This document shows, in pieces, positions 35,022 through 50,100 of a stretch of DNA of 64,000 nucleotides (the first letter of the stretch is position 1; every line of letters begins with the position of its first letter). Made by a program: the position numbers and the translations under genes. The notes under the pieces were generated by a model. The model did not search any database. It was not told the origin of the DNA and saw nothing but the letters and a program-made list of their open reading frames with translations. This stretch comes from an uncultured Alistipes sp. (GTDB taxonomy: Bacteria; Bacteroidota; Bacteroidia; Bacteroidales; Rikenellaceae): the NCBI GenBank assembly GCA_944320985.1, contig CALUJN010000048.1, forward strand, positions 35,293 to 99,292. Direction: 5' to 3'.

Positions 35022-35040
35022 AAAATTTTAATTATCTTTG
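35010..35040 (+). promoter_or_regulatory. Promoter of the putative porin gene
   Basis: A -33 TTG at 35010-35012 and a -7 TATCTTTG at 35033-35040 are separated by 20 bases, the Bacteroidetes spacing. They lie 23 bases before the ATG. Confidence 0.75.
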
Positions 35041-35063
35041 CCGCGGATTTCCGCTCTTTGGCT

Positions 35064-37202
35064 ATGGCAAAACGTTCGAACCGGATATTGCTGAGGCTCC
35101 TGCTGGGAATACTCTTCGTCGCGCCGCTTGCGTCGCGGGCTCAGAGTTTTGATGCCAGCACCCTGCAACGGGCCATGCGCGAGGGGCAGACCGGCAGCCT
35201 CTACGGCTCGAATCCGTATGAAGAGGCCGAAGGCGAAGAGGATACACAACAACCTCAGGATACAACCAAGGAACGGAAAATCCGCAAACCGCTGGAGTCC
35301 TATTTCTTCAGCGACTCGATCCGCGCGTTGAATAACTTCATGTGGCATGTGAAGCGCGATTTCAACCGCGTGGAGATCGGACCGTTGGACACCACGCTGA
35401 CCGATTACCGGATCGACTATCCGTTCTATCGGGAGGATGTGGGCGACATCGCACAGGGAGCCCTCGGGCAAACGTCGCTGCCGCTGAACTATTTCCGACG
35501 TCCGCAGTTCTTTGACTTCAATTTTGCGAGTCCCTACTACGCGTATACCTACAACATGGAGAACGTGCCCTTCTACAACACGAAGCGGCCGATGATCCGG
35601 ATGAACTACGCGGAGTCGGGTCAGAAACGTTATCGCGAGGAGAATTTCGGTATCATGGTGGCGCAGAACATCTCTCCGACCACGGGCTTCAACATCGACT
35701 ACAAGTCGCGCGGAACCCGCGGACTGTACCTCTGGTCGCGGACCAAGAACCACAACCTGTCGCTTGCCGTGAGCCATACGGGGCGTCGTTATTCGATGCA
35801 TGCGGGTTACTACAACAACCACATCGAACAGCAGGAGAACGGCGGCGTGGTGGGCAAATGGGCCATCGCCGACACGACCTTCAGCATGCCTTCGGGCGTG
35901 CCGATGCGCCTGGCCGATGCCGAAGCCCGGAACATCTATCGCAACAACGGTTTCTTCCTTACGCAGTCCTACGGCATTCCGCTGCAGCGCCTCACCGAGA
36001 GCGATTTCTCGATGGCCGGACTTTCGGCCGTCTACATCGGCCACTCGTTCGAATACAGTTCGTGGAGCAAGATCTACACCGATCAGAACGTGCCCTACAC
36101 CAACGAACGGGACCATCGCGACGAGAACGGGAATTTCGTCTCGGCAGAGTACAACTACTACGACCACTGGTATATCAATCCGGTGGAGACGCGTGACTCG
36201 ATCTACGAACGGGTCATCTCGAACCGCGTTTTCGTGCAGGCGCAGCCCTGGGACCGCAACGGGGTGGTGGGCACGCTCGATGCGGGCATCGGCCTCGATC
36301 TGCATACCTACTCGCAATTCGAACTCGACAATTACCTGACGGGCAAGTACACGAAGGAGAAGAAAACCAGCTGGTTCGCGTACGGCTCCGTCAGCGGCAA
36401 GATAAAGAAGTATGTCGATTGGGGCGGGAACCTGAAGTTCTACCCGTCGGGATACAGAGGCGGAGATCTTTCGGTGGGGGCGCACCTCGCACTGACGGGT
36501 TATCTCCGCGGACACCCCCTGATTCTCGAAGGACGCTTCTCGATGGAGCGCCGTTCGCCGACCTATTGGCAGGAGAATCTATACTCGAACCATTATATAT
36601 GGGACACTCCTTTGAACAAGGAGAATGAGACTCGGTTGGAGGTTAAGTTTTCGGTCCCCGACTATGCATTTGAAGCGGGGGCGTGGCAGGGCGTCGTGAG
36701 TGACAAGATCTACTATGGATCGGACAGCAACGTCGCCCAGCATGCAGGAAGCGTAAGCCTCACGAGCGTGTATACCCGCAAGGATTTCCGCCTCGGCGGA
36801 CTTCATTTGGACCACAGGGTATTGTTGCAGTGGAGCACGAATCAGGAAGTTATACCCGTGCCGCTTCTGAGCGCATTCCTTTCGTATTATTACGAGTTCT
36901 GGGTGGTGCGCGACGTACTGCGCCTGCAGATCGGACTGGACGGACGCTATAATACGCGTTATTATGCTCCGGGTTACAATCCGGCACTGTCGGTGTACTA
37001 CAACCAACGCGAGGAGGAGGTGGGGAATTATCCCTACATGGATGCCTTCGTGATGGCGAAGTGGAAGAGAATGCGGATCTTTCTGAAATATCAGCATGTG
37101 AACAAGGGTCTGTTCGGAAACGGAGAGTATTTCTCGGCGGCCCGTTACCCGCTCAATCCGGGTATGTTCAAGATCGGTATCTCTTGGGGATTCTATGATT
37201 AG
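35064..37202 (+). CDS. Putative outer membrane porin (Porin_10-type beta-barrel)
   Basis: This 712-residue protein has a signal peptide ending ASRAQ. The ATG at 35064 is chosen; a TTG six bases earlier is unlikely. The first ~60 mature residues are acidic and Gln-rich (EEAEGEEDTQQPQD), then come alternating amphipathic strands rich in Tyr and Trp to the C-terminus, which ends ISWGFYD. It has the length and layout of the Bacteroidetes 'putative porin' family, found as one copy in many genomes. No TonB plug is seen. Solute specificity is unknown. Confidence 0.82.
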   Translation: MAKRSNRILLRLLLGILFVAPLASRAQSFDASTLQRAMREGQTGSLYGSNPYEEAEGEEDTQQPQDTTKERKIRKPLESYFFSDSIRALNNFMWHVKRDFNRVEIGPLDTTLTDYRIDYPFYREDVGDIAQGALGQTSLPLNYFRRPQFFDFNFASPYYAYTYNMENVPFYNTKRPMIRMNYAESGQKRYREENFGIMVAQNISPTTGFNIDYKSRGTRGLYLWSRTKNHNLSLAVSHTGRRYSMHAGYYNNHIEQQENGGVVGKWAIADTTFSMPSGVPMRLADAEARNIYRNNGFFLTQSYGIPLQRLTESDFSMAGLSAVYIGHSFEYSSWSKIYTDQNVPYTNERDHRDENGNFVSAEYNYYDHWYINPVETRDSIYERVISNRVFVQAQPWDRNGVVGTLDAGIGLDLHTYSQFELDNYLTGKYTKEKKTSWFAYGSVSGKIKKYVDWGGNLKFYPSGYRGGDLSVGAHLALTGYLRGHPLILEGRFSMERRSPTYWQENLYSNHYIWDTPLNKENETRLEVKFSVPDYAFEAGAWQGVVSDKIYYGSDSNVAQHAGSVSLTSVYTRKDFRLGGLHLDHRVLLQWSTNQEVIPVPLLSAFLSYYYEFWVVRDVLRLQIGLDGRYNTRYYAPGYNPALSVYYNQREEEVGNYPYMDAFVMAKWKRMRIFLKYQHVNKGLFGNGEYFSAARYPLNPGMFKIGISWGFYD

Positions 37203-37246
37203 CGTGCTGTTCTGCGCGGTATGAACTGCCCGCAAAACAACCTTTT

Positions 37247-37933
37247 ATGCTGAAAAAGACTGTTTTAACGTTTGCGTTCTTAACCATTTTTACGACATTT
37301 TACGGCTTTAACGCCCATTTCGGCACTCCCGTGACGGATGATGTGCTGAACGCCGAAACGGATTATGCTCCGCATGTTGAAGAGAGCTTCGTCATTTCGG
37401 CCTACGACAACCTGATTCGCCGTATCAGCGAACAGGAGGGGCATGATTGGCGGCTGATGAGTGCCATCGCTTATCATGAGTCGCGCTTCACGCCCGATAT
37501 CACCTCTCGGAGCGGCGCCCGGGGCCTGATGCAGATCATGCCTTCGGTGGCCCGGCATTTCGAGGTGCCGCTCGACCGGGTTTCGGATCCCGAGACCAAC
37601 GTCTGGCTGGCCAACAAGCTGATGACGGAGATCCAGTCGATGCTGCGGCTTCCGGCGGGTATTTCCGAGAAGGATCGCATGAGCATCGTCCTGGCTTCGT
37701 ACAACAGCGGGATAGGACATGTGAACGATGCCCGGCGTCTGGCCCGCCAGTATGGTGAAGATCCCAATTCGTGGGAGGTAGTGGCCCGCTATCTGGCCTT
37801 GAAGGCTCAACCTGAATACTATGAGAGCGAGGTGGTCAAATGCGGCCGGTTTACCGGAAGTCGTCAGACGCTTGCTTATGTGGACGACGTAATAGGACGC
37901 TACGACAAGTACTGTCGCATTGCCGGGAGGTAA
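37247..37933 (+). CDS. Lytic transglycosylase (SLT domain), exported
   Basis: This 228-residue protein has an N-terminal hydrophobic signal and one SLT/lysozyme-like domain (about 65-200). The catalytic glutamate is Glu78 in AIAYHESRF, followed by the family motifs GARGLMQIMPSVA and ASYNSGIGHV. Such enzymes cut the MurNAc-GlcNAc bond in peptidoglycan, leaving a 1,6-anhydro end, and act in the periplasm. It lacks the periplasmic-binding domain of MltF. It follows the porin by 44 bases and may share its message, and a strong terminator follows. Confidence 0.93.
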   Translation: MLKKTVLTFAFLTIFTTFYGFNAHFGTPVTDDVLNAETDYAPHVEESFVISAYDNLIRRISEQEGHDWRLMSAIAYHESRFTPDITSRSGARGLMQIMPSVARHFEVPLDRVSDPETNVWLANKLMTEIQSMLRLPAGISEKDRMSIVLASYNSGIGHVNDARRLARQYGEDPNSWEVVARYLALKAQPEYYESEVVKCGRFTGSRQTLAYVDDVIGRYDKYCRIAGR

Positions 37934-37950
37934 TCCCCGACAGATATGGA

Positions 37951-37990
37951 AAAGGCGGCGCTTCGGAATTTCCGAGGCGCCGCCTTTTTT
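37951..37990 (+). terminator. Intrinsic terminator after the lytic transglycosylase gene
   Basis: A GC-rich stem (aaaggcggcgc / gcgccgccttt) is followed by a run of T residues, 17 bases after the stop. Confidence 0.92.
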
Positions 37991-38012
37991 TGCAGACCGG
38001 GATCCGTAAGGA

Positions 38013-39767
38013 TCAATCCCCGCTTTCGAGGGGCGTGTAGATCAGTTCGAAATCATCGATCCACATGGTGCTTTGTGTGCTGCCGATGAAATAGTCGCCC
38101 CAGCGCGACGCCGAGCAGACCACCATGATGTGTGTCGGGATCCGGTCGGTCGAACGGTACTCGATCGGGATGGTAATCTGCTCCCACTCTTTGACGCTTT
38201 CGGTAAAGAAGTGAGCGCCGTAGCCGATTACATCCTCGCCCTGCGGATTGAAGAAGGTCCTTACGTCGCGCGTGTCGATGCTCACGGGACAGTCGTCCGA
38301 GCCGAAGGGCTGGCCTCCGTTCGTATCGTTGCCGGCTCCGTCCTTGCCCATGCCGTATTTCTCTTTGGTCCAGGTTCCCAGGGCGATGTAGATCGAACCG
38401 TTGTCGGGATCCCCGGTTTGGAGGGTTTCTCCCGGCGGCATGACCGTTCCGAGCATGTCGATCTTTCCACCATTGTATTTCACCCATACGCGCAGGGCCG
38501 TGGGACGCAGCGTGAAGGGGCGTCCGAAGTTTACGACGCCGTTTGTCCCGATCGTTGCGGAGAATTCGCCGGTGAAGAGGTTTCCGGCGGCCAGTTTGGT
38601 GGCCACGTTGGTGCTGGCGAGTTTGGCCGATTTTGTTCCGGAGCTTCCGGGGCGGACTGTCGAATCGTCGGGGGTGGTGACGTTGTCCTTGGCATTGAGG
38701 ATCGCCGAGCCGTTGTTGCCCGTGCCCCAGAAGGGGTTGATCGGCTTCCCCGTTTCGTCGGAGAGGAACGGCAGCCAGGGGTTGCCCAGTTGGGACCACT
38801 CCTCCAGACCGCTGTTGGGGAGTTGTTCGACCCCCTCGGTAGTTACGGTCGTGGGGTCGCTCTCGTCCTCTCCGCAATAGGATTTGAACTGGTAGGTTGT
38901 CAACGGCTGGGCCTTGAAGGCTGCCTCGAAGGTCCCGCCATCGATCTTTACGTCGGGGACTTCGGACCATTCGCCCTCGGAGCCCGTGCGGTAGCGGAAG
39001 CCCATCGGCTGCCCGGCGATTCCCGAACCGCGGAGCCAGACGACACCCGACCAGGCATCGACCCTTTCGGTGGTGACGGTCTTGTCTGTCGGCAGCACAT
39101 AGAGGATCCAGCGTTCGGTGCGCCCGTGGCAGGTTACATCCACGAAATGCGGGGTGCCGAGCGTGGGATCGCCCGCATCGGGTGAGCTGTAATCCATTGT
39201 CGAGAGCTCCTCCATGGTGGGGGAATAGGTCGTGGTGACGCTTTCGGTCGAAGCCGGTCCGAGTTTGAGTTCGGTGATGGTTACGCGGCTGCGGTCGGCA
39301 TCCTTGGCAACGTAGGCCGTGGCCTTGCGGCTTTCGAGGTCGAACTCCGTGGCACCGACCTGTCCCTCGACGCGGAAACTTCGTGAGATGGTCTGCGTGG
39401 CAACGATCTGCCAGTCATAGTCCTGGTAGAGGCTGAGCGTGATGTAGATCGGCGTGCGCATGTCGAACGTCCCGCTCAGGGGGCACGACGTTCGGACGTT
39501 GTCAAGGAAGATCTGACGGTCGATGTTCGTGTTGTGGGGTGTGACCGTGTAGGAGATCTCCTCGATGCGGACGTTCTGGATGTCGGTGGCTTCGTCGAGC
39601 GAAAGCGTCACCGTCCGGGTCGCGAGGTCGATGTTCGAGACCGTGAATCCCTCGCCCTGTACATTATTGATGGCGATTTCGACGGTCGGATAGGGGAGGT
39701 CGTTGGTAATGCACGACGTTCCCAGGAGCATTATGCCTGCAAGCAGATGACCGATGAGACGTTTCAT
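38013..39767 (-). CDS. PCMD-domain surface lipoprotein
   Basis: This is a 584-residue lipoprotein with lipobox GTSC (Cys19). Immunoglobulin-like strands fill about residues 25-310. The C-terminal ~270 residues form the PCMD domain (putative carbohydrate metabolism domain), recognised by SGLEEW, NPFWGTGNN and the terminal GDYFIGSTQSTMWIDDFELIY pattern. PCMD has a jelly-roll-like fold of unproven function and is thought to bind carbohydrate. It is the last gene of a seven-gene leftward operon, and its upstream neighbour is three bases away. Confidence 0.85.
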   Translation of the reverse strand: MKRLIGHLLAGIMLLGTSCITNDLPYPTVEIAINNVQGEGFTVSNIDLATRTVTLSLDEATDIQNVRIEEISYTVTPHNTNIDRQIFLDNVRTSCPLSGTFDMRTPIYITLSLYQDYDWQIVATQTISRSFRVEGQVGATEFDLESRKATAYVAKDADRSRVTITELKLGPASTESVTTTYSPTMEELSTMDYSSPDAGDPTLGTPHFVDVTCHGRTERWILYVLPTDKTVTTERVDAWSGVVWLRGSGIAGQPMGFRYRTGSEGEWSEVPDVKIDGGTFEAAFKAQPLTTYQFKSYCGEDESDPTTVTTEGVEQLPNSGLEEWSQLGNPWLPFLSDETGKPINPFWGTGNNGSAILNAKDNVTTPDDSTVRPGSSGTKSAKLASTNVATKLAAGNLFTGEFSATIGTNGVVNFGRPFTLRPTALRVWVKYNGGKIDMLGTVMPPGETLQTGDPDNGSIYIALGTWTKEKYGMGKDGAGNDTNGGQPFGSDDCPVSIDTRDVRTFFNPQGEDVIGYGAHFFTESVKEWEQITIPIEYRSTDRIPTHIMVVCSASRWGDYFIGSTQSTMWIDDFELIYTPLESGD

Positions 39768-39770
39768 GCT

Positions 39771-40631
39771 TTATCTCTTTTTCTTGTCCCACATGTGGAT
39801 CGTCATGCCGATGTTGATGGCCAGGATGTTGAGTTTGAACTTCATGCTCGAGGCCTCTCGGGATCCGATCTTGTTGCCTTGTTCGTCCTTCTGGTTCACG
39901 GAGGTATACTGGATGCCGCCGAGTCCGAACGAAAGCGTTGCACAGACGTTCGGGAAAATGTAGACCGCCGCTCCGGGATTAAACGCCAGTTTGAGCTGCG
40001 TATTGTCGCTGAAGGTCCGTTTTATTTTGCCCTCCGACTCGTAGGAGAAGCGCGACGTGCCGGTGGATACCGAGAGCTCGAACTCGGCGAAGAGTCCGAA
40101 ACGTCCTTTGGGATCGAGCCCCGCATAGGAGCGGTGGAAGATTCCGAACGAGAAGTTGTTGCTTTGGAAGTCGAGATAGGGGATGTTGAGCGAGATGTCG
40201 TTGTTCTCGCCCAGATCGAAGAGTGCCCCCTTGTCGAGTGTACCGCTCATGTGGTTGTATCCGAAGCGGGCACCCAGACAGCTGTTGTCGCGGTAGAAGT
40301 ATCCGACGAAGGGCTTTACGGTCGTAAAGGTTCCGTCGGCGTCGATGTTGTCCAGGATGAGCAGGACGTCGGTATCGTCGCTTGTCAGGGTTCCGTAGGA
40401 GGCCGTCAGACCCATGATTACCTCTCCCTTGTAGGCAAACTTGAGCTTGTTGATTTCGCGGTCGATGCGTCGTCGTGTGGGCAGGAAGCGTTGTTTGTGG
40501 GTGGTGTCGCTGGCAAGCGTGGAGACTGCCAACTCCCTGGCCGATGTCTGAAGCGACTCTTCACCGAGACTTCGGGCTGCGGCCGGGAGTCCGAAGCTGA
40601 CGAGCAGCAGTATGGATAGAATACGTTTCAT
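39771..40631 (-). CDS. Outer membrane beta-barrel protein, paralogue 2 of the DUF4493/PCMD operon
   Basis: This 286-residue exported protein (signal peptide ending AAARS) has about ten to twelve amphipathic strands, for example GEVIMGLTASYG, VKPFVGYFYRD and LGARFGYNHMSG. It ends in a membrane-type strand plus a short basic tail (HMWDKKKR). It resembles its upstream neighbour in length, strand order and the closing MKFKLNILAINIGMTIHM motif, so the two genes look duplicated. It may form a small barrel that holds or exports the operon's lipoproteins; this is inference from context. I do not recognise a named family. Confidence 0.72.
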   Translation of the reverse strand: MKRILSILLLVSFGLPAAARSLGEESLQTSARELAVSTLASDTTHKQRFLPTRRRIDREINKLKFAYKGEVIMGLTASYGTLTSDDTDVLLILDNIDADGTFTTVKPFVGYFYRDNSCLGARFGYNHMSGTLDKGALFDLGENNDISLNIPYLDFQSNNFSFGIFHRSYAGLDPKGRFGLFAEFELSVSTGTSRFSYESEGKIKRTFSDNTQLKLAFNPGAAVYIFPNVCATLSFGLGGIQYTSVNQKDEQGNKIGSREASSMKFKLNILAINIGMTIHMWDKKKR

Positions 40632-40643
40632 GGCGTTCCGGGT

Positions 40644-41486
40644 TTAGAGATAGAAGGCCACTCCGAGGCCGATGGAGAAGATGTTGACCTTGAAGTTCAT
40701 CTGGCTGAGGTTGCGTTCGCCGACCGAGACCTGGTTGTGAACCTGTTCGGTGTGTTCGTAGGTGATACCCATCACGCCGACGTTCACCTCCACGGCCATG
40801 TTGTTCGTGGCGAAGGCGATGATTCCGGGCGAGATGCCCAGTGAGAAGGAGTATCCCTTCTGATAGGTTCCCTTCACGGGCGAGTCGTTGGCGAAGCGGG
40901 CTTCGGTGCCGCCTCCGGCGAGTGACAACTCGTTGAAGAGGGCGAAACGTTTGTTGCGCCCCAGGGGGATGTACTGCCGCCAGATGGCCGCCACCTGATA
41001 GGAGTGCTGCAGGGCGTAGTAGTCTTGGACGTTGAGATTCACTCCCGAACCCTCGTCTCCGAAATGGATGGCTGCCTGGTCGAGCTTGAGCAGCGTGCGC
41101 GAGTAGATGAACCGGCCTCCCAGTGCCATGTTGTCGCGAAGGGCATAGGCGATCATCGGGCTGATCTTGAACGTGTAGCCCGTGGAGTTGATGCCCTCGA
41201 CGACCATGAACTGGTAGCTTTTGTTGGTATGCGTTGAGTAGGCTGCCGTGCCGCCGAAAACCCACTGTCCCTTCGGCACGAAGAGGTTGTGCGTGTCGGT
41301 CAAGCCCCGCTGGCTGCGCATTTCGTTGACCGTAGGCGGGCGCCGGGGAGCGGTCTGCTCGCTTCGGCTCGGGGCCGGACCTGCCGAAAGGCTGTCCGTG
41401 GCGGAGGTTTCCGGGGTACGGAGGGCCTGGGCCGTTGCCGGGATGCACAGCACGAGAGTCAGCAGTTGTAGAAGGATGGTGCGCAT
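40644..41486 (-). CDS. Outer membrane beta-barrel protein, paralogue 1 of the DUF4493/PCMD operon
   Basis: This is a 280-residue exported protein from the ATG at 41486. That start is chosen because it begins the signal peptide MRTILLQLLTLVLCIPATAQA; the open frame extends further but overlaps the upstream gene. A Pro/Ser-rich linker precedes amphipathic strands (GQWVFGGTAAYSTH, GYTFKISPMIAYAL, MALGGRFIYSR). It ends NFKVNIFSIGLGVAFYL, closely like the downstream paralogue. It is probably an outer membrane barrel working with the lipoproteins of the operon; function is unknown. Confidence 0.72.
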   Translation of the reverse strand: MRTILLQLLTLVLCIPATAQALRTPETSATDSLSAGPAPSRSEQTAPRRPPTVNEMRSQRGLTDTHNLFVPKGQWVFGGTAAYSTHTNKSYQFMVVEGINSTGYTFKISPMIAYALRDNMALGGRFIYSRTLLKLDQAAIHFGDEGSGVNLNVQDYYALQHSYQVAAIWRQYIPLGRNKRFALFNELSLAGGGTEARFANDSPVKGTYQKGYSFSLGISPGIIAFATNNMAVEVNVGVMGITYEHTEQVHNQVSVGERNLSQMNFKVNIFSIGLGVAFYL

Positions 41487-41503
41487 CGGTTTGCTTTTGA
41501 TTG

Positions 41504-43636
41504 TTAATAAACCCATTGGAAATCGTCGACCCACAGGTGGTTTTTGTCGCATCCGTTGAAATAGTCTCCGTAGGCGTTTGCCGCGCAGGAGATCACCAGC
41601 GTGTAGTTTCCACCCGGAGCGGGGGCCTCCTTGTCATACCAGTAGATCCTGAGGGCATCCTGGCTGGAGACCAGTGCATTCCCTTCGGTGCTTTGTTCGA
41701 TCCACAGGGATCCGTAACCGAGGATGCGGCCTTCGCTTACGGTCCCGGCTCCGTTCGCGGGATCCCAGGTTCCGCTGTTCGTACAGGATCCCAGGATGGC
41801 GAAGGTCGAGGAGACCTCATGCCGGGCGCTCCAATCGACGATCGCCACGTAGATCCGGGCACGGTCCTGTCCGTCGATGGCCAGGGGACCGTTTCCTCCG
41901 TTGTTGTTGACGATGCCTACCTGGGCATGGTAATTCAGACGCAGGGCTCGGGGACGGGCCGTGTAGCTGTAGGGTTGCCCGAAACCTACGGTACCTGTCG
42001 TGCCGCTCATCCGGAAGGTCCCGGCGAAGAGATTCCCTGCCGCCATGGCTGCAATGTAATAGGTGGATTGCATGTTGGCGTAATGGTTCCCGACGATGGC
42101 GCCTTGCGTGCAGAGGCTTGATGTGTTGTTGTTGTTGCCGCTGCCCCAGAAGGAGGTGTTCTGGTTGTTGATCGTGAAGCAGCTCAGCGAACTGTTCTCC
42201 ATGTCGCCGTCGGGGATGCTCTGGCCTCCGGCGGTCGAGAACGTAGCGAGGCTCTCCTGTCCGTCGATTACGACCCGGCACTCGTACTCGGCGTCGGCCC
42301 AGACGCCCGTTCCGGCCTTGGGTGTATAGACCGTCTGTGCGTTTTCGTTGGTCGACTCCTCCCATTGGACGCCGAACGTGGCTGTCCAGAATCCGTCGCC
42401 GGAGTTCGTGCCGGGCAGCTCCTGCCACTCGCCCTCTTTCGTGCGCAGGCCGAACGTCACCGTCGAGGCTCCGGAGTCGAATACCCGGGCCCGGAGCGTG
42501 ACCGTATTCCGCCACAGGTCGTAATCGGCCTCCGTCGGGATCTCAATGCCCTGGATCGAGAAGATACACTCCTCGTAACCCTGTCCGCCGCCGTTGTCCG
42601 CGGCTTCGATGCGCAGCGTATGGTCGCCGCCCGTGCATCCGGCGAAGAAGTCGTCGGAGAGGGTCACGACGAGGGCGTTCTCGGCCGTTTTCTCTACGGC
42701 GAGCCCGGCCTCGGGGGGCGAAATGGCCGCCAACAGGTCATGGGACTTTCCGTCGAAGGTCAGCGAGGCCGCCGTCATCGGTTTGACGGTCGTGATCCGA
42801 ATCCGTCGTTCGCCGCCCGTATATTGTTGCGGTTCGGAGAGGTCGAAGCCGTCGCCTTCGATCGTGGGATCGGGGCTCCAGATGATCGTATCGTCGAAAT
42901 CGTCGGTCTTGTCCTCCACGCGGATCGCCACGGCCTCGATGAATCCCGGCAGATCGGGCGAGTACCGGAACGTCAGCGTATATTTCCCCGGAGTCCGGAC
43001 CTCGGAGATGACACCGGATTTCGTCACCGTGCCGCGCGATGTGTGCTCTCCGCTGAACTGCCACGACAGGGCATCGGTCCCCTTCGCAAGGGTGAAATAT
43101 CCCGTGGCATCCGTCGTATAGCACAGCGTGGAGGGGGCGTCGGCCTGGCTTTCGTCATACGTTGTCCCCGCCATCACCCGCACGGCGAAGTCCGATCCGA
43201 AATTCGTGGCGATCGTTTCGTCGAACACCACGGCAACGGCGGTATTCTGCAGCGAGCATTTCACCTCGACGGGCGTGTTCTCGCCGGGAGTCACCGTGAA
43301 CGACACCTCGCCCTTGTAGAAGCGTTTCGTGAACGAGGCTGCGGCGCTCTCTCCGGCTTCCACCGTCACGCGATAGGCTCCGGCGATGAGTTCGAGCCGT
43401 TCCGGCAGATCCTTGTTCGACGTGTATTGGCGGATCAACTCCTCCTTGTCGTTGTAGATGCACACGGCGAGGTGCTCCAACGGATCGTAGGTCTCGTCCG
43501 ACACCTCCGTGCGGGTCGAGATCTTCATGGTCAGACTTCCGGTCGACCCCTCGGGATCGAGCTCCCGGACCTCCTTCGAACAGGCGGCCAGGGCCAGTGC
43601 CACTGTCGGGAGCAGATAGGTAAACAGTCGCTTCAT
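41504..43636 (-). CDS. DUF4493-PCMD two-part surface lipoprotein
   Basis: This is a 710-residue lipoprotein with lipobox LAAC (Cys19) followed by SKE. The N-terminal ~230 residues are DUF4493, marked by GAYRVTVEAGES, FYKGEVSFTV and VEVKCSLQNTAVAVVF. Immunoglobulin-like repeats follow, with a C-terminal PCMD domain from about residue 480 (SFWGSGNNNN, ending GDYFNGCDKNHLWVDDFQWVY). It thus joins in one chain the two domain types found separately in other genes of the operon. Its ATG shares one base with the stop of the upstream gene (TAATG), a sign of coupled translation. Confidence 0.83.
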   Translation of the reverse strand: MKRLFTYLLPTVALALAACSKEVRELDPEGSTGSLTMKISTRTEVSDETYDPLEHLAVCIYNDKEELIRQYTSNKDLPERLELIAGAYRVTVEAGESAAASFTKRFYKGEVSFTVTPGENTPVEVKCSLQNTAVAVVFDETIATNFGSDFAVRVMAGTTYDESQADAPSTLCYTTDATGYFTLAKGTDALSWQFSGEHTSRGTVTKSGVISEVRTPGKYTLTFRYSPDLPGFIEAVAIRVEDKTDDFDDTIIWSPDPTIEGDGFDLSEPQQYTGGERRIRITTVKPMTAASLTFDGKSHDLLAAISPPEAGLAVEKTAENALVVTLSDDFFAGCTGGDHTLRIEAADNGGGQGYEECIFSIQGIEIPTEADYDLWRNTVTLRARVFDSGASTVTFGLRTKEGEWQELPGTNSGDGFWTATFGVQWEESTNENAQTVYTPKAGTGVWADAEYECRVVIDGQESLATFSTAGGQSIPDGDMENSSLSCFTINNQNTSFWGSGNNNNTSSLCTQGAIVGNHYANMQSTYYIAAMAAGNLFAGTFRMSGTTGTVGFGQPYSYTARPRALRLNYHAQVGIVNNNGGNGPLAIDGQDRARIYVAIVDWSARHEVSSTFAILGSCTNSGTWDPANGAGTVSEGRILGYGSLWIEQSTEGNALVSSQDALRIYWYDKEAPAPGGNYTLVISCAANAYGDYFNGCDKNHLWVDDFQWVY

Positions 43637-45003
43637 TATTGGATGGCTGCTTGTACGAGAATCAACGAGGCTTCCGTCGAGCCGCCCGCGTTGTCGGTTA
43701 CTCTGAGGTTGAACTGATAGGTATTGGGCACCCCTTCGGTGTGGGGCTCCAGTTCGGCGAGAATCTTGACGAATGCTGCCGCTACCTTGAAGGGAACGGA
43801 GGTTTGGTTCAGCACCTGATCTCCGACGAGGAAGCCGACGAGCGAGCCCAACACGTCCGCAGCCTCGGGACTCGGATGGCAGAGGTCCACTCCCGGTGAA
43901 ATGAGATCGGCCAGTCCGACGCCCTCGAGCAACGGTTCCAGCGCCGGGGCCTCGACCGTGACGAACAGTTCCTTGATTCCACCGTTCGGAGCCGAGATGG
44001 CAATTTCGATATCCTTGATCTGGTTGAGGATATAGGGCTCTGACAGGTCGTGGTCATCCGTGAGCATGACGATCGTCGGAGCCTTGTCGTCCTCTCCGCC
44101 TTCCTGGTCGATCGGCTCCTCCGTCAGGCCGTCGGTCCCGTTTATGGTGATCGTTTCGTCGAGCAGGAAGTTGTCGACCTCGATGTCGAGCTTGATACCG
44201 CCCTGGGAGGCGTAGGCGATCACCAGCTCGATCTTGCGCCATTGTCCGGCCTTGACTTTGGAGATCGTACGGCTGAAACTTGCGTCGCCACCCTCGACAA
44301 ACGTTCCGTTGAGACGGAATTCGAGATCGTTCTCCGCCGCCGTCGGCATGAAAAAGGCCGCCTGTTTCCCATCCCATTGCGCCTTCTTGAACTCCATCGA
44401 GGCTTCGTCCAGCGAGACGGTGGCTGTCGCATCGTTGGCGAGCTGTTCGGCAAGATCCGCCGAACAGAGCAGCGTCACCTTGATGTTCTGCAGCGTGCAG
44501 GTGATCTGTTCGATCGTGGTCGTGGCCCCCTTCGTGATCGAGAAGGAGTAGTTTGCCCCGTAGACCGGCGTCTCCCAGGCTGCAGCCTGAATCTCTTCGT
44601 CCCGGTGCGAGCAGACCTGCAGTTCGTAATTGCCGATCGGCAGCTCCATGGGCCCCCCGGCGAGTTGCTCCGAGAGCTTCTTGTAGGACCCCTCGAAGTG
44701 CGAACGTTGATCCGCCGTGTTGACGATCTTCATCCGGTAGTTGTCCGTCTCAATCCCGGAACGGGTCTTGGTAAATCCTCCCGGCGGGGTTTGTGTGGCA
44801 TCCTCCGTGTTGTCGCCCTGGATGTCGGTCTCGACATCGGCAATGACCTCCAGCGAGAGTGCCGGGCCGTTCAGATAACCCGTCATTCCGGACGGCGTGC
44901 CGCCGTTTCCCGTATTCTTGTAGGGCGGTTCTTCGTTTACGCAACCCGTCAAAAGAAATGCGCCCAAAGTCAGTGCCGTGAATAATCCGGTAAAGGTTTT
45001 CAT
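43636..45003 (-). CDS. DUF4493-domain surface lipoprotein
   Basis: This is a 455-residue lipoprotein with lipobox LTGC (Cys21) followed by VNEE. A DUF4493 domain covers about residues 45-255, with GNYELQVCSHRD, a YSFSITKGATTT stretch and CTLQNIKVTLLCS, the hallmark shared with its neighbours. The C-terminal ~170 residues have a putative beta-sandwich (IKDIEIAISAPNGGIKELFVTVEAP) and end in a short strand. The role is unknown. It lies 13 bases after the upstream DUF4493 gene and overlaps the next by one base. Confidence 0.78.
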   Translation of the reverse strand: MKTFTGLFTALTLGAFLLTGCVNEEPPYKNTGNGGTPSGMTGYLNGPALSLEVIADVETDIQGDNTEDATQTPPGGFTKTRSGIETDNYRMKIVNTADQRSHFEGSYKKLSEQLAGGPMELPIGNYELQVCSHRDEEIQAAAWETPVYGANYSFSITKGATTTIEQITCTLQNIKVTLLCSADLAEQLANDATATVSLDEASMEFKKAQWDGKQAAFFMPTAAENDLEFRLNGTFVEGGDASFSRTISKVKAGQWRKIELVIAYASQGGIKLDIEVDNFLLDETITINGTDGLTEEPIDQEGGEDDKAPTIVMLTDDHDLSEPYILNQIKDIEIAISAPNGGIKELFVTVEAPALEPLLEGVGLADLISPGVDLCHPSPEAADVLGSLVGFLVGDQVLNQTSVPFKVAAAFVKILAELEPHTEGVPNTYQFNLRVTDNAGGSTEASLILVQAAIQ

Positions 45004-45016
45004 ATCTCGAATCGTT

Positions 45017-45823
45017 TTATGCGTTGTTGCCGTTTTGGGAATTGTCGTTCAACTCGACATCGATCGTGCGTTCGTCGAGGTATTTGTCGCTGAGGTTGAT
45101 CGTCACCGTGGCGCTGCCGTTGTCTTGGGCATCGAAATGAAACGTGTGGCGCGTGCGTGCAACGGTCTGCTCGAGTTGTTGTTTGGGAAAGGTGTAGTCC
45201 CGGTCGAATCCCGCGCCGGTCTGGCTCTGGAGTTTGGCCTTCCCGGTGAGGGTCAGACGCGTGCCGGCCTCGACGAAGACCGCTTCATCCGGCGTCTCGG
45301 CTCCGGGCGTGAAGGTGAAACGGTTCCCGGCGGAGGTCGTGACCGTGAAGGTCGCCTCGTGGAAGTAGTTCAGAAACGACTCCGAGGCCGTTACGAGCAC
45401 CTGCGCATTGGCGATGCGGGCCGTAAGCGACTCTTCGATGGTTTTGCGCGGAAGGATCTCGACGCTCTTCGATCCGTAATAATAGGGTTTTCCGACCCCT
45501 TCGTCGGCAGGCTTTCCGTACGAGATTTCGACGGTGTAGCTTCCGGCCTGGAGAAGCGTCTGGGAGTCGTTGAATGCCGCGATGCTCGGCCAGCTTTGTG
45601 AATAGTCCGTGCCGGAGATCGTGAGCGAGAACTCTTCGGCCGAGGGAACCGGAGAGGTGGCGATCTCCGCACGGGTCGAGATCATCGCATCGGGTTCGAG
45701 CCGGATCTGCAGGGTTCCGTACCCTTCGGTTTCGGTGGAGGTTTCGGACTTGGAGCATCCTCCGGCCAGCAATACCGCTACAACCGGGATTATCCACCAT
45801 TTATGGAATACAACAGTTTTCAT
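45017..45823 (-). CDS. DUF4493-domain surface lipoprotein, short form
   Basis: This is a 268-residue lipoprotein with lipobox AGGC (Cys23) followed by SKSE. Almost the whole mature chain is one DUF4493 domain: GTLQIRLEPDAMISTRA, GSYTVEISYGKPADEG, YYYGSKSVEILPRKT and ANAQVLVTAS mark the repeated pattern. It is the smallest of the three DUF4493 proteins in the operon and lacks any added C-terminal domain. Its ATG overlaps the stop of the fimbrillin-like gene by one base. Confidence 0.78.
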   Translation of the reverse strand: MKTVVFHKWWIIPVVAVLLAGGCSKSETSTETEGYGTLQIRLEPDAMISTRAEIATSPVPSAEEFSLTISGTDYSQSWPSIAAFNDSQTLLQAGSYTVEISYGKPADEGVGKPYYYGSKSVEILPRKTIEESLTARIANAQVLVTASESFLNYFHEATFTVTTSAGNRFTFTPGAETPDEAVFVEAGTRLTLTGKAKLQSQTGAGFDRDYTFPKQQLEQTVARTRHTFHFDAQDNGSATVTINLSDKYLDERTIDVELNDNSQNGNNA

Positions 45824-47664
45824 TACTTGATAGGAGCTAAGGAGACCCGTATGTTGTCAAGAATAACCCATTGCTGGGTGTAACTGAAGTTGGGAGCCCC
45901 ATCGACGAAGCAATCCCAGGACAAACGACATCCGTTGTTGCAGTTTTCGATGGCAAATTCGATGGAAGGCGCCGTGGCGGGATCCAGATTTTCCACGGAT
46001 CCGTTCGTGGGGGCCGAGACGGTCCCCGTCAGGAATTCGATGGTTTCACCACCCTTGATCGCCGAGGAGCCTCCCTCGTAATATCCGAACAGGGCATCGG
46101 TCTTTGTGGTATATCCGTAATTCAACACCGGGGTGCCACCTTTGTTATTTCTTCCCGAGTAGTTGAACTTTACATAGACTTTACAGGGCGTTTTCAGTCC
46201 TGCGATCTGTCGGGAGTCCACACGTCCCCGATAGGTGCCTAACAGGATGACTCTTTCTGCTTGATGCCGGATGGATAGCGTTTTGCCTCCTTCGATATAC
46301 CATTGGTTGCCGCTCCATCCGGGCAGGCCCCAATCATCTCCCCATTCGATTTGGGTGCTGGACCCGGAGTCGGACGGCCCGCCGTTGTTGTTGTGTGTGG
46401 TCGTAAGGCTGAAATCCTCTTCGAGGAGGTAGGGCACGTTGAAACTGGCCACGCGGTTCTCTGCGCCGTCCGTTATTGCCGGCATGGTGAACTCTTCGCT
46501 AAGGAGTGCATGTTCCGAATCGTACGTTACCTGGAAACCGGCGAGTTCCTGTGTCGGATTCGGATAGCCCCGGAAGCGGACCGTATAGTCGCCCGTGCCG
46601 GTGACATCGAACGTCCGGCTCGGGTTGCCGTCCTCGAAGGTCCAGCCCGAAGGTGCCGTCACCGTAAAGGTGTTGATCGCCTCACCCAGCGTGTTGATTC
46701 CCGTCTCCGCGAGATGGAAGATCAGTTGCGTGATCGGAGCCTCCATGGCCGGAATGTTGTAGTTGATCGGGGTGGTGTGGCCTGCGGCAAAGGTCCGGTC
46801 GGCGGTCAGCGGGGCGAACGAGCGTGTCTCCGATTCGCGGCTCTGGCTCGATGCCACGATCGAAACCTCCTGCCCCTCGTCGAGCGTTACGGGGGCGATC
46901 ATGGCATAGACCACATCGCCCACATCCTTCGGCTCGGCGAACCGCAGCGTCAGGGTGTTGCTTGAGGCGCTCAGTACGCCGTCGGCTTCGGGATTGGAGG
47001 CATCGACGGTCAACCGGCCTGCAACAGGCTTCGGGAAGGTGAGCACGATCTCCGAGACGGGCTCTCCGAGGTCGTTCTTCGGGATCGAGATTTTCAGTAC
47101 GTGGATCTTGTGAGCGAACTGCAGGGTGACGATGTCCGAGTTGTCGCTCACGCCGCTGGGATCCTTCCGGTCGTGTTCGCGCAGGGCTTCGGCCCCCACG
47201 ATCGGGTCGGCCACCATGATGTCCCATTCGCCGTGGAACGCTCCGTCCTGTACGGCCGGGATTTCGTAGCTGGCCTGCAGCCCTTCGGTCGAGGTCGGGA
47301 CGGGCGAGACGGCATAATAGGCATAGGTATCTTCGGCCATCTGCGGGATACTGCCCCGGAAGCTGGCCGAATTGTAGGTTGCATTATAGTGGTAGAGGCT
47401 GAAGGTCGAGGCTTCAAGAACGGTCTGTGCGGCGGAGTTTACGGCCCACAGCGCGATTTGGTCGCCGGGTTGCCACTTCACCGTTTTCCCGTCCTCTTCC
47501 AGGGAGGTGCGGGTTGCAGCCTGGGTGGTGATGTCGAGCCGCGGCCCCGAGCCGATCGAAACCTGAATGGCATGCGCTGCCGGTTCCGTTTCGGACTCCG
47601 GAGCCTGGGAGCAGGCGGCAAGCAGAGTCGGCAGAAGCAGCAGAATTGTCCAATGTTTCATCAT
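45823..47664 (-). CDS. Fimbrillin-like surface lipoprotein, first gene of the DUF4493/PCMD operon
   Basis: This 613-residue lipoprotein starts at the ATG at 47664 (others lie at 47670 and 47661). The lipobox is LAAC, with Cys near residue 18. Residues about 45-320 resemble the fimbrillin family: a TRTSLEEDGKTVKWQPGDQIALW opening and YAYYAVSPVP and FAHKIHVLKISIPKNDLGE segments are typical of Mfa/FimA-like subunits. A second immunoglobulin-like region and a C-terminal domain ending WVILDNIRVSL follow. No Arg-gingipain-type processing site or donor strand can be assigned by eye, so it may be a surface protein rather than a fimbrial shaft. Confidence 0.7.
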   Translation of the reverse strand: MMKHWTILLLLPTLLAACSQAPESETEPAAHAIQVSIGSGPRLDITTQAATRTSLEEDGKTVKWQPGDQIALWAVNSAAQTVLEASTFSLYHYNATYNSASFRGSIPQMAEDTYAYYAVSPVPTSTEGLQASYEIPAVQDGAFHGEWDIMVADPIVGAEALREHDRKDPSGVSDNSDIVTLQFAHKIHVLKISIPKNDLGEPVSEIVLTFPKPVAGRLTVDASNPEADGVLSASSNTLTLRFAEPKDVGDVVYAMIAPVTLDEGQEVSIVASSQSRESETRSFAPLTADRTFAAGHTTPINYNIPAMEAPITQLIFHLAETGINTLGEAINTFTVTAPSGWTFEDGNPSRTFDVTGTGDYTVRFRGYPNPTQELAGFQVTYDSEHALLSEEFTMPAITDGAENRVASFNVPYLLEEDFSLTTTHNNNGGPSDSGSSTQIEWGDDWGLPGWSGNQWYIEGGKTLSIRHQAERVILLGTYRGRVDSRQIAGLKTPCKVYVKFNYSGRNNKGGTPVLNYGYTTKTDALFGYYEGGSSAIKGGETIEFLTGTVSAPTNGSVENLDPATAPSIEFAIENCNNGCRLSWDCFVDGAPNFSYTQQWVILDNIRVSLAPIK

Positions 47665-47691
47665 GAGCAAATTCTTTTATCTGAGTATCTG

Positions 47692-47699
47692 CAAAAATA
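47692..47699 (-). promoter_or_regulatory. -7 promoter element for the seven-gene DUF4493/PCMD operon
   Basis: On the minus strand it is TATTTTTG, a TAnnTTTG match, 28 bases ahead of the chosen ATG. A clear -33 TTG is not seen at the expected distance. Confidence 0.55.
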
Positions 47700-47796
47700 G
47701 GAGCAAGAGGCCGTTTTCGAAAATAAATTCAACGAACAGGCTGTTTTTCATCACGAAACCGGCTCTTTCACACGACCATTGCAGGAACGTTTACAT

Positions 47797-47837
47797 AAAA
47801 AAGGCTCTCCGACACACTCTTGTCGGAGAACCTTTTT
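47797..47837. terminator. Terminator between the DPP5-like gene and the DUF4493/PCMD operon
   Basis: A long hairpin (aaaaagg-ct-ctccgaca / tgtcggag-aa-ccttttt) with one two-base internal mismatch has T-runs on both strands. It should end the leftward DPP5-like transcript. Confidence 0.85.
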
Positions 47838-47907
47838 CGCGTTGAATCCCGTTTTTTCGGGGCCTTGCGGATTCTTTTTCGGGAGGGCCCTCTTTCCGGT
47901 TTTGTCG

Positions 47908-47916
47908 CCCCCCCCC
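47908..47916. repeat. Nine-base C/G homopolymer after the DPP5-like gene
   Basis: On the sense strand of the peptidase gene this is nine G residues starting 13 bases after the stop codon. Confidence 0.9.
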
Positions 47917-47928
47917 GCCTCCGAAGGA

Positions 47929-50073
47929 CTATTCGGCCTGCTTGACGTAGCGGTCGAGCCAGCCGAAGAATTCGCGGTTCCAGACCATCGAGTTCTGGGG
48001 CTTGAAGACCTGGTGCGCCTCGTTCTCGAACTCCACCAACCGGGCCGGGATGCCGCGTACGCGGGCGGCCGTGAAGGCCTCAAGGGATTGTGTGTAGGGG
48101 ATGCGGAAATCCTTCTCGCCGGTGAAGATCAGGATCGGCGTATCCCACTTTTCGACGAACTTGTGGGGTGAATTGGCATAGGAACGCTGTGCCGTGGCGT
48201 TCGTGTGGTCCCAGTACGAGCCTCCGTAGTCGTTGTTGACGAACCATAACTCCTCGGTTTCGCCGTACATCGACTCGAAATTGAAGATGCCGCAATGGGC
48301 GATGAAGGCCTTGAAGCGCTTCTCGTGGCATCCGGCCAGGAAGAAGACCGAATAGCCGCCGTACGAGGCACCGACACATCCCATGCGGGTTTCATCGGCC
48401 CACGGTTCGCGCGCCACGTCGTCGATGGCCGAGAGGTAGTCGCGGATGTTCTGTCCGGAGTAGTCGCCCGAGATCTGGTCGAGCCACTCCTGCCCGAACG
48501 AGGGTACGCCGCGGCGGTTCGGTGCCACGACGATGTAACCCTGCGCGGCCATCAGCTGGAAGTTCCAACGGTAGCTCCAGCCGTTTGCCACGACGCTCTG
48601 CGGTCCGCCTTCGCAGTAGAGCAGCGTGGGGTAACTCTTGGCGGGGTCGAAATCGGGCGGAAGGATCACCCACGTGAGCATCTGCTTGCCGTCGGTGGTC
48701 CGTACCCAGCGCTTCTCGACCTTGCCCATGCGGATCTTTTCGTAAATGGCGTCGTTGATGGCGGAAATCTTCGTCAGGGTGCCGTCAGCGGGGTTCACCT
48801 CGTAGAACTCCGAGGCCGACGAGATCGTGGCCAGCTCGGCCACCATGCGCCCGCCGCCCGTCGTAAAGGCCGTGATGCTGTGATCACCCTCGGTGAGGAC
48901 CTCCACCTCGCCGTCGACCGTCGCCACGCGGCAGATCTGATACGTACCTTCGATCGGTGCGATGAACCACACGCGGTCGTTCCCCTCCCAGACGACGTTC
49001 TGGGCGTTGTAATCGAAATCCTCCGTCAGGTCGCGCATCTCGGCCGTCGTGCAGTCGTAGAGGAACAGACGCGCCTTGTCCGATTCGTTGCCGGCCCGGC
49101 GCTGCGAGAGGAAGGCGATCTTCTGATCGTCGGGCGACCAGACGGGGTATTTGTCATACCCCGGAAGGTTGTCGCGCAGCCGCTCGATCGGCTCTCCGGA
49201 GATGAGATTCGTCGGTTTGCAGATGTTCTGCGTCTGTCCCGAGGCGACGTCGTAGACGAAGATGTCCGAATCGGTCGAGACGGCGTAGGCCGTGCCCGTA
49301 AGGGGTTTGCAGGTGTAGGCGAGCATCGTGCCGGCGTTGTTCCAGGCGATCTCGGCCATGTCGAAGTAGGGGGCCAGGGGAACATCCCAGGCTGCGTCGG
49401 CGCCGAGGAGGTCCTGTCCCTCCTTCAGCCCGTCGGGTCCGAAGTCACCGACGAACAGGTGCATGTATTCACCCTCGTCCCAATAGTCCCAGTGGCGGGC
49501 CATCAGGTCGTCGTAGATCCGCGCCTTCGACTTCGGCATGTCCTTGTGCATGTCGGCCGAACGGCGGTCGGCGGCCTGGACGCGCTGTACGTACCACGCC
49601 TTGTCGCCGCGGGGCGAGATGCCGAACCCCTCGACGTCACGTGCGAAGTCCGAAAGCTGGCGCACGTCGCCGCCTGTGGGGTTCATCTCCCAGACCTGCA
49701 TCGAGCCGCTGCGGTCCGAGAGGAAGTAGATCTTCTGTCCGTCGGCGCTCCAGCGCGGCGAGAGGTTGTTCGAGGTGTAGTCGGTGAGCCGGGTTACGGC
49801 TTTCGTGTCGAGCGCTTCGATCCAAAGGGTCGTCACGCCGCGGTTCTCGGCCATGTTGTAGTCGGTCTGCTGGTAGAGGAGGCGTGTGCCGTCGGGTGAA
49901 AGAACGGCGCCGGCAGCACGGCTCATTTTCCACATCACCTCGGGAGTGAAGCGCCCCGCGGCGATCTCCTCCGGCGTCAGTGCATTGTCGATCTTCAGGG
50001 CTTCGGGACGCTGCCGGTCGCAGGCACCCAGCCCCACAGTTGCAAGAACCATCATCAGAATGATTTTTTTCAT
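47929..50073 (-). CDS. S9-family prolyl oligopeptidase, dipeptidyl-peptidase 5-like
   Basis: This is a 714-residue serine peptidase with a lipoprotein-type signal (LGAC, Cys18). No acidic pair follows the Cys (DRQR), so it probably faces the periplasm. The N-terminal beta-propeller of WD/PD40-like blades (LSPDGTRLLY, PRWSADGQKIYFLS, PVWSPDDQKIAFLS) spans about 45-440. The C-terminal alpha/beta-hydrolase has nucleophile Ser570 in GASYGGYS, Asp in GEKDFRIPY and His in FENEAHQVF. Gut Bacteroidales DPP5-type enzymes release dipeptides from peptides after import. A terminator and a G-run follow the gene. Confidence 0.93.
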   Translation of the reverse strand: MKKIILMMVLATVGLGACDRQRPEALKIDNALTPEEIAAGRFTPEVMWKMSRAAGAVLSPDGTRLLYQQTDYNMAENRGVTTLWIEALDTKAVTRLTDYTSNNLSPRWSADGQKIYFLSDRSGSMQVWEMNPTGGDVRQLSDFARDVEGFGISPRGDKAWYVQRVQAADRRSADMHKDMPKSKARIYDDLMARHWDYWDEGEYMHLFVGDFGPDGLKEGQDLLGADAAWDVPLAPYFDMAEIAWNNAGTMLAYTCKPLTGTAYAVSTDSDIFVYDVASGQTQNICKPTNLISGEPIERLRDNLPGYDKYPVWSPDDQKIAFLSQRRAGNESDKARLFLYDCTTAEMRDLTEDFDYNAQNVVWEGNDRVWFIAPIEGTYQICRVATVDGEVEVLTEGDHSITAFTTGGGRMVAELATISSASEFYEVNPADGTLTKISAINDAIYEKIRMGKVEKRWVRTTDGKQMLTWVILPPDFDPAKSYPTLLYCEGGPQSVVANGWSYRWNFQLMAAQGYIVVAPNRRGVPSFGQEWLDQISGDYSGQNIRDYLSAIDDVAREPWADETRMGCVGASYGGYSVFFLAGCHEKRFKAFIAHCGIFNFESMYGETEELWFVNNDYGGSYWDHTNATAQRSYANSPHKFVEKWDTPILIFTGEKDFRIPYTQSLEAFTAARVRGIPARLVEFENEAHQVFKPQNSMVWNREFFGWLDRYVKQAE

Positions 50074-50100
50074 TTTTGTGGAGGTTTTCCTATTTATTCG

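What the first reader, a model, noticed from the sequence alone, without database searches (positions are those of the whole stretch)
38013..47670. Seven-gene operon of DUF4493, PCMD and fimbrillin-like lipoproteins with two duplicated outer-membrane barrels: a candidate undescribed envelope system
Seen: seven genes on one strand with gaps of -1, 13, -1, 17, 12 and 3 bases, one promoter-like -7 element ahead, and a terminator isolating it from the gene before. The products are five lipoproteins and two ~280-residue barrels alike in length and end motif. One lipoprotein (41504-43636) joins DUF4493 and PCMD in one chain, while neighbours carry them separately, which suggests the domains work together. 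The first gene resembles fimbrillin subunits. Inference: the barrels could export or anchor a surface fibre or adhesin complex made of the lipoproteins, with PCMD as the sugar-binding tip. No enzyme, transporter or usher homologue is present.
Basis: partly seen in the sequence, partly recalled or inferred. Interest (0 to 1): 0.78.

Follow-up and report, generated by a model that had tools for sequence, protein, structure and literature searches.

The report
Conserved fimbria-like surface operon with barrels
A seven-gene block found across many gut Bacteroidales appears to build a pilus-like, probably sugar-binding surface structure whose base is a pair of outer-membrane barrels, an arrangement with a recognisable ancestry but no description that I could find in the papers at hand.

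Summary
In detail: seven genes on one strand (38013-47664) encode five lipoproteins and two tandem outer-membrane barrels, in an Alistipes-type genome. The block is no local accident. 34 of 36 other genomes of the genus carry it; in 29 all seven genes are together, in 5 a contig end cuts it. Homologues occur in other Bacteroidales families. New results: (1) DUF4493, of unknown function, looks like a branch of the fimbrillin superfamily; one bridging protein passes the Pfam cut-offs of both DUF4493 and Mfa2 (moderate evidence). (2) g1-g4 and relatives mostly keep Thr/Ser-Arg-Ala/Ser/Thr behind the first strand, where type V pilins are cut; g7, Mfa2 anchors and other lipoproteins mostly do not. 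(3) B1 and B2 are two old clades, about eight strands by eye, too narrow to export protein. Barrels with a PCMD lipoprotein also occur without DUF4493 beside them. Best reading: a type-V-pilus-like fibre or adhesin of Arg-processed lipoproteins on a barrel/PCMD base. No Mfa2 anchor or FimA-type shaft is encoded, so I do not file it as a type V pilus.

The parts
47692..47699 (-). TATTTTTG, Bacteroidales -7 promoter-like element, 27 bases before the g1 ATG
   Evidence: no -33 partner matched
45823..47664 (-). g1: lipoprotein, Mfa_like_1 (fimbrillin-like) domain plus about 300 residues of unknown fold; TRT at residues 51-53
   Evidence: the Arg is invariant in the 25 rows of A4
45017..45823 (-). 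g2: lipoprotein, DUF4493 only (268 aa); TRA at residues 50-52
43636..45003 (-). g3: lipoprotein, DUF4493 plus a C-terminal part of about 160 residues; TRS at residues 80-82
41504..43636 (-). g4: lipoprotein, DUF4493 - middle part like that of g7 - PCMD (710 aa); TRT at residues 41-43; candidate tip
40644..41486 (-). g5 / B1: outer-membrane beta-barrel, about eight strands by eye, 280 aa with signal peptide
39771..40631 (-). g6 / B2: second barrel, paralogue of B1, 286 aa
38013..39767 (-). g7: lipoprotein, Ig-like N-terminal part plus PCMD (584 aa); no fimbrillin domain; candidate base component; carries a TRT at residues 50-52 all the same
37950..37991 (.). hairpin between g7 (-) and the SLT lytic transglycosylase gene (+): seven T on the + side, four on the - side
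   Evidence: read by eye; listed on + only
47797..47829 (-). terminator-like hairpin after dpp5, separating it from g1
   Evidence: read by eye; listed on + only

Best explanation
The operon makes a surface fibre or adhesin that works like a type V pilus of Bacteroidales but stands on its own outer-membrane base. Proposed mechanism: g1-g4 are exported as lipoproteins and brought to the cell surface. An Arg-specific surface protease, perhaps the C11 (clostripain-type) peptidase, cuts after the conserved Arg behind the first strand. Lipid and first strand are released, leaving a groove into which a strand of the next subunit is inserted. g7 (Ig-PCMD) keeps its lipid and, with barrels B1 and B2, forms the membrane base. 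The PCMD domain of g4, and of the first gene in other families, displays a pocketed jelly roll that probably binds a glycan. Shown by sequence: gene linkage, lipoprotein signals, the conserved Arg, kinship of DUF4493 to fimbrillins (moderate), the old barrel duplication, and barrel/PCMD units without DUF4493 beside them. Inferred: cleavage, strand exchange, polymerisation, glycan binding, physical contacts.
For: Conservation: DUF4493 in 34 of 36 and barrels in 34 of 36 other genomes of the genus, the same 34. In 29 all seven genes lie together (21 in the window's order, 8 with B1-B2 divergent beside g1); the other 5 are cut or split by contig ends. Order-wide, DUF4493 occurs in 13 of 14 genomes with a barrel at E<1e-30 (threshold set after seeing the list) and in 6 of the other 184; Fisher p 5e-15, not corrected for phylogeny; 11 of the 13 have both on one contig. 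Fimbrillin kinship: g1 is Mfa_like_1. L233:1279-2217 passes both DUF4493 (43.8 bits) and Mfa2 (24.1, cut-off 21.2) over the same stretch. hhalign of DUF4493 sets with Mfa2 sets gives up to 83%, unrelated families 1.8% or less after cleaning. Arg: 84 of 96 DUF4493 rows; [TS]R[AST] in 122 of 167 g1-g4 N-termini against 6 of 54 g7, 0 of 31 Mfa2 and 1 of 20 other lipoproteins. In Mfa1/3/4 Rgp cuts at such an Arg; the anchor Mfa2 lacks it (PMC5789003, passages). C11 peptidase in 19 of 19 genomes of the genus searched (own included) and in 12 of 13 barrel-bearing genomes outside it. Barrel/PCMD units without DUF4493 beside them: G209, G219, G129.
Against: No Mfa2/FimB anchor, FimA-type shaft or usher is encoded, and no repeated shaft subunit is evident. 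DUF4493-Mfa2 comparisons vary: the g2-type profile gives 1.3-2.4%, no better than unrelated families, and D4 against the small Mfa2 set 9.5%. In the same kind of run two parts of g1 matched each other at 49% over 28 columns, so values near 50% can be chance. DUF4493 against g1's Mfa_like_1: 0.5%. Of 85 Pfam families weakly matched by the 96 DUF4493 rows, no fimbrillin family is among the 25 shown. No PDB fimbrillin is hit by the DUF4493 or g1 profiles or by the bridge protein. With the looser pattern R[AST], g7 scores 34 of 54 and does not separate; the window's own g7 has a TRT. 45 of 167 g1-g4 N-termini lack [TS]R[AST]. With barrels at E<=1e-3 the overlap is 15 of 31; 5 fetched stretches with such weaker barrels show no PCMD gene beside them. 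In 8 genomes g7 stays with the lipoprotein genes, not the barrels. C11 also occurs without the operon (2 of 11 outside the genus, and G016) and is missing in G129. No structure model could be made.
Confidence: 0.5

Rival explanations
1. A non-polymeric surface complex: barrels B1/B2 hold g7 and the DUF4493/PCMD lipoproteins at the cell surface as a fixed glycan- or mucin-binding platform; the Arg motif is a structural turn, not a cleavage site.
For: One copy of each subunit and no repeated shaft. PCMD resembles carbohydrate-binding jelly rolls (PMC2954218, introduction and parts 1-2 of 3 of the Results read). Barrel + PCMD pairs occur without DUF4493 beside them (L201, L206).
Against: [TS]R[AST] separates the fimbrillin-like subunits from g7 and from other lipoproteins. 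The fimbrillin kinship would be unexplained.
Confidence: 0.3
2. A nutrient-uptake locus: lipoproteins capture a glycan and the barrels serve as passive pores, like a polysaccharide-utilisation locus without SusC/D.
For: BT2081 and several PCMD paralogues of B. thetaiotaomicron lie in polysaccharide-utilisation loci (PMC2954218 introduction). In G175 a protein with a TonB-receptor plug domain follows the DUF4493 part.
Against: No SusC, SusD or glycoside hydrolase among the seven proteins. About eight strands leave no substrate-sized pore (by eye; inference). My maps show no further gene kept with the block across families (flanking genes were left unnamed, so this is not a full test).
Confidence: 0.1
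3. The barrels are exporters that carry the lipoproteins to the surface.
For: Barrels and lipoproteins are encoded together.
Against: Barrel region of about 230 residues with about eight amphipathic strands by eye. 42 of 99 members match the OMP_b-brl family at E<=1, best E 3e-5. In G175 the barrel unit lies on another contig than the DUF4493 genes.
Confidence: 0.07

Closest known systems
Type V pili (FimA/Mfa1 fimbriae) of Porphyromonas and other Bacteroidales
   Same: Lipoprotein subunits; fimbrillin-superfamily domains (g1 by Pfam, DUF4493 by moderate evidence); Arg behind the first strand; some subunits with an extra C-terminal domain.
   Different: No Mfa2/FimB anchor and no FimA-type shaft gene; two barrels and an Ig-PCMD lipoprotein instead. 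The same genome has an Mfa2 gene with a FimA-type match beside it elsewhere.
PCMD proteins such as BT2081
   Same: g4 and g7 end in the same jelly-roll family; g7 matches PDB 3hbz, 4jrl, 3s30 and 4het.
   Different: BT2081 and paralogues are described near SusC-type transporters (PMC2954218 introduction); here PCMD is joined to fimbrillin-like domains and barrels.
PorP/SprF-type barrels that anchor T9SS adhesins (recalled, not tested)
   Same: Idea of a barrel holding a surface adhesin.
   Different: No T9SS tail family among the Pfam matches of the seven proteins. No C25 peptidase, the family of the T9SS sortase PorU (recalled), in the window's own genome, which is 87% complete.
OMP_b-brl (PF13505) barrels
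   Same: 42 of 99 members match PF13505 at E<=1.
   Different: Window B1 scores 16.3 bits against a cut-off of 28.7; B1 and B2 have an N-terminal extension of about 50 residues and, in the operon loci, stand beside PCMD lipoprotein genes.

Membership tests
Type V pilus | Subunits made as lipoproteins | tested here: met
   Lipobox cysteines in g1-g4; among relatives a lipobox was seen in 18 of 27 g1, 48 of 54 D2, 53 of 60 D3 and 38 of 56 D4 ORFs, some of them cut or with a wrong start
Type V pilus | Fimbrillin-superfamily domain in g1 | tested here: met
   PF13149 39.8 bits, cut-off 27
Type V pilus | Fimbrillin-superfamily domain in g2-g4 (DUF4493) | tested here: inconclusive
   Bridge protein over both cut-offs; profile matches 57-83% for some pairs, 1.3-9.5% for others; no PDB fimbrillin hit
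Type V pilus | Arg or Lys behind the first strand for protease maturation | tested here: met
   Arg in 84 of 96 rows; [TS]R[AST] in 122 of 167 against controls; cleavage itself not tested
Type V pilus | FimB/Mfa2 anchor encoded in the cluster | tested here: not met
   No PF08842 match at E 0.1 in any of the seven proteins
Type V pilus | FimA/Mfa1-type shaft subunit | tested here: not met
   No PF06321 match at E 0.1 in the seven proteins
Type V pilus | Arg-specific maturation protease in the genome | tested here: inconclusive
   C25 not found, C11 found in the own genome; specificity and role not tested
Type V pilus | Polymer on the surface | not testable with these tools
   needs an experiment
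PCMD family | PF13201 over cut-off | tested here: met
   g4 70.7 and g7 142.1 bits, cut-off 28; PDB 3hbz E 1.2e-5 for g7
Chaperone-usher pilus | Usher and chaperone | tested here: not met
   None among the seven proteins
Polysaccharide-utilisation locus | SusC/SusD pair | tested here: not met
   None among the seven proteins

The most novel reading that the evidence does not exclude
A separate class of Bacteroidales surface filament: Arg-processed DUF4493 fimbrillins carrying PCMD glycan-binding tips, assembled on a dedicated base of two old paralogous eight-stranded barrels plus an uncut PCMD lipoprotein, without any FimB/Mfa2 anchor.
Probability: 0.35. Interest if true: 0.75.

Novelty: new variant of a known kind. 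Interest (0 to 1): 0.58.

Why it matters
It gives a likely ancestry and a testable role (processed fimbrillin) to DUF4493, and ties it to PCMD and to a barrel family that matched no Pfam or NCBIfam family over cut-off. The block is in 34 of 36 other genomes of this Alistipes genus and also in Muribaculaceae, Barnesiella, Bacteroides and others. It may therefore be a common way in which gut commensals hold on to glycans or surfaces, in genomes that mostly lack C25 (gingipain-family) peptidases.

Tried and rejected
Barrels as protein exporters or porins: set aside on strand count. The script itself flagged 31 overlapping amphipathic stretches; eight is my reading by eye, not a structure.

g7 N-terminal part as DUF4493 kin (95% and 93%): an artefact of four misassigned g4-type rows in the g7 set; after removing them 0.1-0.4%.

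DUF4493 against g1 Mfa_like_1: no match, kept as a negative. PDB searches with the barrel, DUF4493 and g1 profiles, with g1 alone and with the bridge protein gave nothing or chance-like hits. A weak NCBIfam match of g4 to the FimD tip adhesin (13.9 bits, cut-off 170) was not used. Rfam: nothing at gathering score in 35000-50100.

Literature: DUF4493, 'PCMD domain', PF14900, PF13201 and 'putative carbohydrate metabolism domain' gave 0 papers in the held open-access library. A search of Alistipes with fimbria, DUF, outer membrane, lipoprotein and PCMD (5 of 6 terms) gave one paper, not opened. Subscription journals and preprints are mostly not held.

DPP5 next door as the processing enzyme: named a dipeptidyl-peptidase, so not pursued.
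Full report
WHAT IS THERE. Seven genes lie on the minus strand, with gaps of -1, 13, -1, 17, 12 and 3 bases: g1 47664-45823 (Mfa_like_1), g2 45823-45017 (DUF4493), g3 45003-43636 (DUF4493), g4 43636-41504 (DUF4493 + PCMD), g5/B1 41486-40644 and g6/B2 40631-39771 (barrels without a Pfam or NCBIfam family over cut-off), g7 39767-38013 (PCMD). g1-g4 and g7 have lipobox cysteines. A -7 element (TATTTTTG, 47699-47692) precedes g1, without a -33 partner under the pattern used. Hairpins stand after dpp5 and after g7 (by eye), the latter with only four T on the minus strand. The window lies in an Alistipes-type genome: the nearest B1 relatives are titled Alistipes.

IT IS CONSERVED AS A UNIT. Among 36 other genomes of the genus, DUF4493 was found in 34 and the barrel in 34, the same ones; G016 and G025 (74% and 85% complete) have neither. 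Of the 34, 29 have all seven genes together: 21 in the window's order and 8 with B1-B2 divergent next to g1. In the other 5 a contig end cuts or splits the block. A scan of named species genomes for B1 relatives gave 71 loci in Alistipes, Tidjanibacter, Barnesiella, Bacteroides propionicigenes, Phocaeicola, Muribaculaceae and others; one is titled Pseudoflavonifractor, probably a misnamed bin. 23 of 71 show the order M-D-D-DP-B1-B2-P and 18 of 71 the order D-D-DP-B1-B2-P. The other 30 are cut by contig ends, rearranged, have extra genes or lack some; for example, 6 have only one DUF4493 gene beside B1-B2-P. These loci were chosen by the barrel and overlap in part with the genus set, so they show what goes with the barrel, not how common it is.

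In 198 genomes drawn from the order, 31 have a barrel match at E<=1e-3 and 14 at E<1e-30; 19 have DUF4493. At the strict threshold, which I set after seeing the list, 13 are shared (Fisher p 5e-15, not corrected for phylogeny). In 11 of the 13 both lie on one contig; in G129 and G175 they do not. At the loose threshold 15 of 31 are shared. G209 has strong barrels and g7 without DUF4493. G043, G078, G154, G167, G189 and G231 have DUF4493 without a strong barrel.

TWO MODULES. B1, B2 and g7 can stand without the DUF4493 genes (G209; L126 within about 10 kb upstream), on another contig (G175), or turned against them (L154). Pairs of a barrel and a PCMD lipoprotein occur in G219 and G129. Against a strict barrel-g7 unit: in the 8 genomes with divergent barrels g7 stays with the lipoprotein genes, and 5 stretches with weaker barrels (L202-L205, L217) show no PCMD gene beside them. 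B1 and B2 form one clade each with 100/99 support, with rows from Rikenellaceae, Bacteroidaceae, Barnesiellaceae and Muribaculaceae on both sides (72 B1 and 27 B2 rows; midpoint root, some long branches flagged). The duplication is thus probably older than these families. Some genomes (G044, G141, L153) have one barrel only.

DUF4493 LOOKS LIKE A FIMBRILLIN. The protein at L233:1279-2217 passes the Pfam cut-off of DUF4493 (43.8 bits, residues 72-311) and of Mfa2 (24.1 bits, cut-off 21.2, residues 75-304), with a FimA match below cut-off (19.2 of 21.4). Profile comparison of DUF4493 with Mfa2 gave 60.8% over 73 N-domain columns; over subsets 83 and 59% (D3), 57 and 66% (all), 63 and 9.5% (D4), 1.3 and 2.4% (D2). 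Unrelated families gave 1.8% or less with DUF4493, once a contaminated g7 set was cleaned. A caution: two parts of g1 matched each other at 49% over 28 columns. Negative results: no match to g1's Mfa_like_1 profile, no PDB fimbrillin, no fimbrillin family among the 25 of 85 secondary Pfam families shown. I count this as moderate evidence.

THE ARG SITE. In type V pilins, Rgp cuts at an Arg in the loop behind the first strand (Mfa1 Arg49, Mfa3 Arg43, Mfa4 Arg54); the anchor Mfa2 has no such site (PMC5789003, passages). Rgp is needed for Mfa1 polymerisation (PMC5954841, passages). In the DUF4493 alignment the residue at that place is Arg in 84 of 96 rows, followed by Ala, Ser or Thr in 80. In g1 relatives it is invariant in 25 rows. 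Between +10 and +60 after the lipid cysteine, [TS]R[AST] is found in 17 of 21 g1, 37 of 44 D2, 43 of 62 D3 and 25 of 40 D4 N-termini, against 6 of 54 g7, 1 of 20 other lipoproteins, and 0 of 31 Mfa2 (first 45 residues of the domain). The looser R[AST] gives 21 of 21, 43 of 44, 50 of 62 and 26 of 40 against g7 34 of 54, other 6 of 20 and Mfa2 6 of 31, so it does not separate g7. In g7 the Arg lies in an R-x-V-T-L stretch that looks like a strand (by eye). The window's g7 itself has a TRT there. The N-termini are related sequences, so the p values overstate.

PROTEASE. C25 peptidases (gingipain family) were found in 1 of 19 genomes of the genus and not in the window's own. C11 (clostripain family) was found in 19 of 19, and in 12 of 13 barrel-bearing genomes outside the genus against 2 of 11 without strong barrels (Fisher p 4e-4, confounded by phylogeny and habitat). 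Fragipain, named as a conserved cysteine protease that processes a B. fragilis protoxin (PMC8406203, start of abstract in the listing), is a C11 enzyme, and Arg specificity is typical of the family (both recalled). This is a lead, not a demonstration.

BARRELS. The alternation profile, read by eye, is consistent with about eight strands between residue 50 and the C-terminus. 42 of 99 members match OMP_b-brl at E<=1, best 3e-5. Eight strands leave no protein-wide pore (general knowledge), which favours an anchor or scaffold over an exporter.

DOMAIN MOSAIC. In 23 loci outside Rikenellaceae the first gene is a protein of over 780 residues: DUF4493, then a part like g3's C-terminus (97%), an Ig part like g7's (96%) and a PCMD end (99%). 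In Rikenellaceae, and in G162 of another family, this place is taken by g1 and g2. g4's middle part matches g7's Ig part at 99%. The subunits are thus built from few exchangeable parts. The PCMD pocket is thought to bind carbohydrate from its structure (BT2081, PMC2954218: introduction and parts 1-2 of 3 of the Results read).

JUDGEMENT. Works like a type V pilus: likely. Is a type V pilus by its usual definition: no, since no Mfa2 anchor or FimA-type shaft is encoded. The most probable reading is a fibre or adhesin of Arg-processed fimbrillin-like lipoproteins on a barrel/PCMD base (0.5). The main rival is a static surface glycan-binding complex (0.3).

Noticed in passing
L080:6580-7719; L207:129-9600: A second DUF4493 context: DUF4493 joined to DUF6359 (L080), or DUF4493-like genes beside DUF6359, DUF5689 and an 890-residue CarboxypepD_reg/Plug protein (L207).
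   Followed up: partly
L208, L209, L210, L211, L081: Single DUF4493 genes of 418-453 residues without barrels beside them.
   Followed up: partly
L109, L110, L114, L118, L152: dpp5 (S9 peptidase) lies directly downstream of the operon in these Rikenellaceae, and on both sides in L118.
   Followed up: no
L266 (G000:C59:5000-24000): The window's genome carries an Mfa2 gene with a FimA-type match beside it, away from this operon.
   Followed up: partly
window 35058-37933: Porin_10 gene next to an SLT lytic transglycosylase gene, kept beside the operon in several relatives (L051, L055, L064, L072, L082).
   Followed up: no
L121:13095-15636; L153:10126-16200: Extra DUF4493 genes (in L153 also one resembling g1) follow the operon, as if more subunits had been added.
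   Followed up: no
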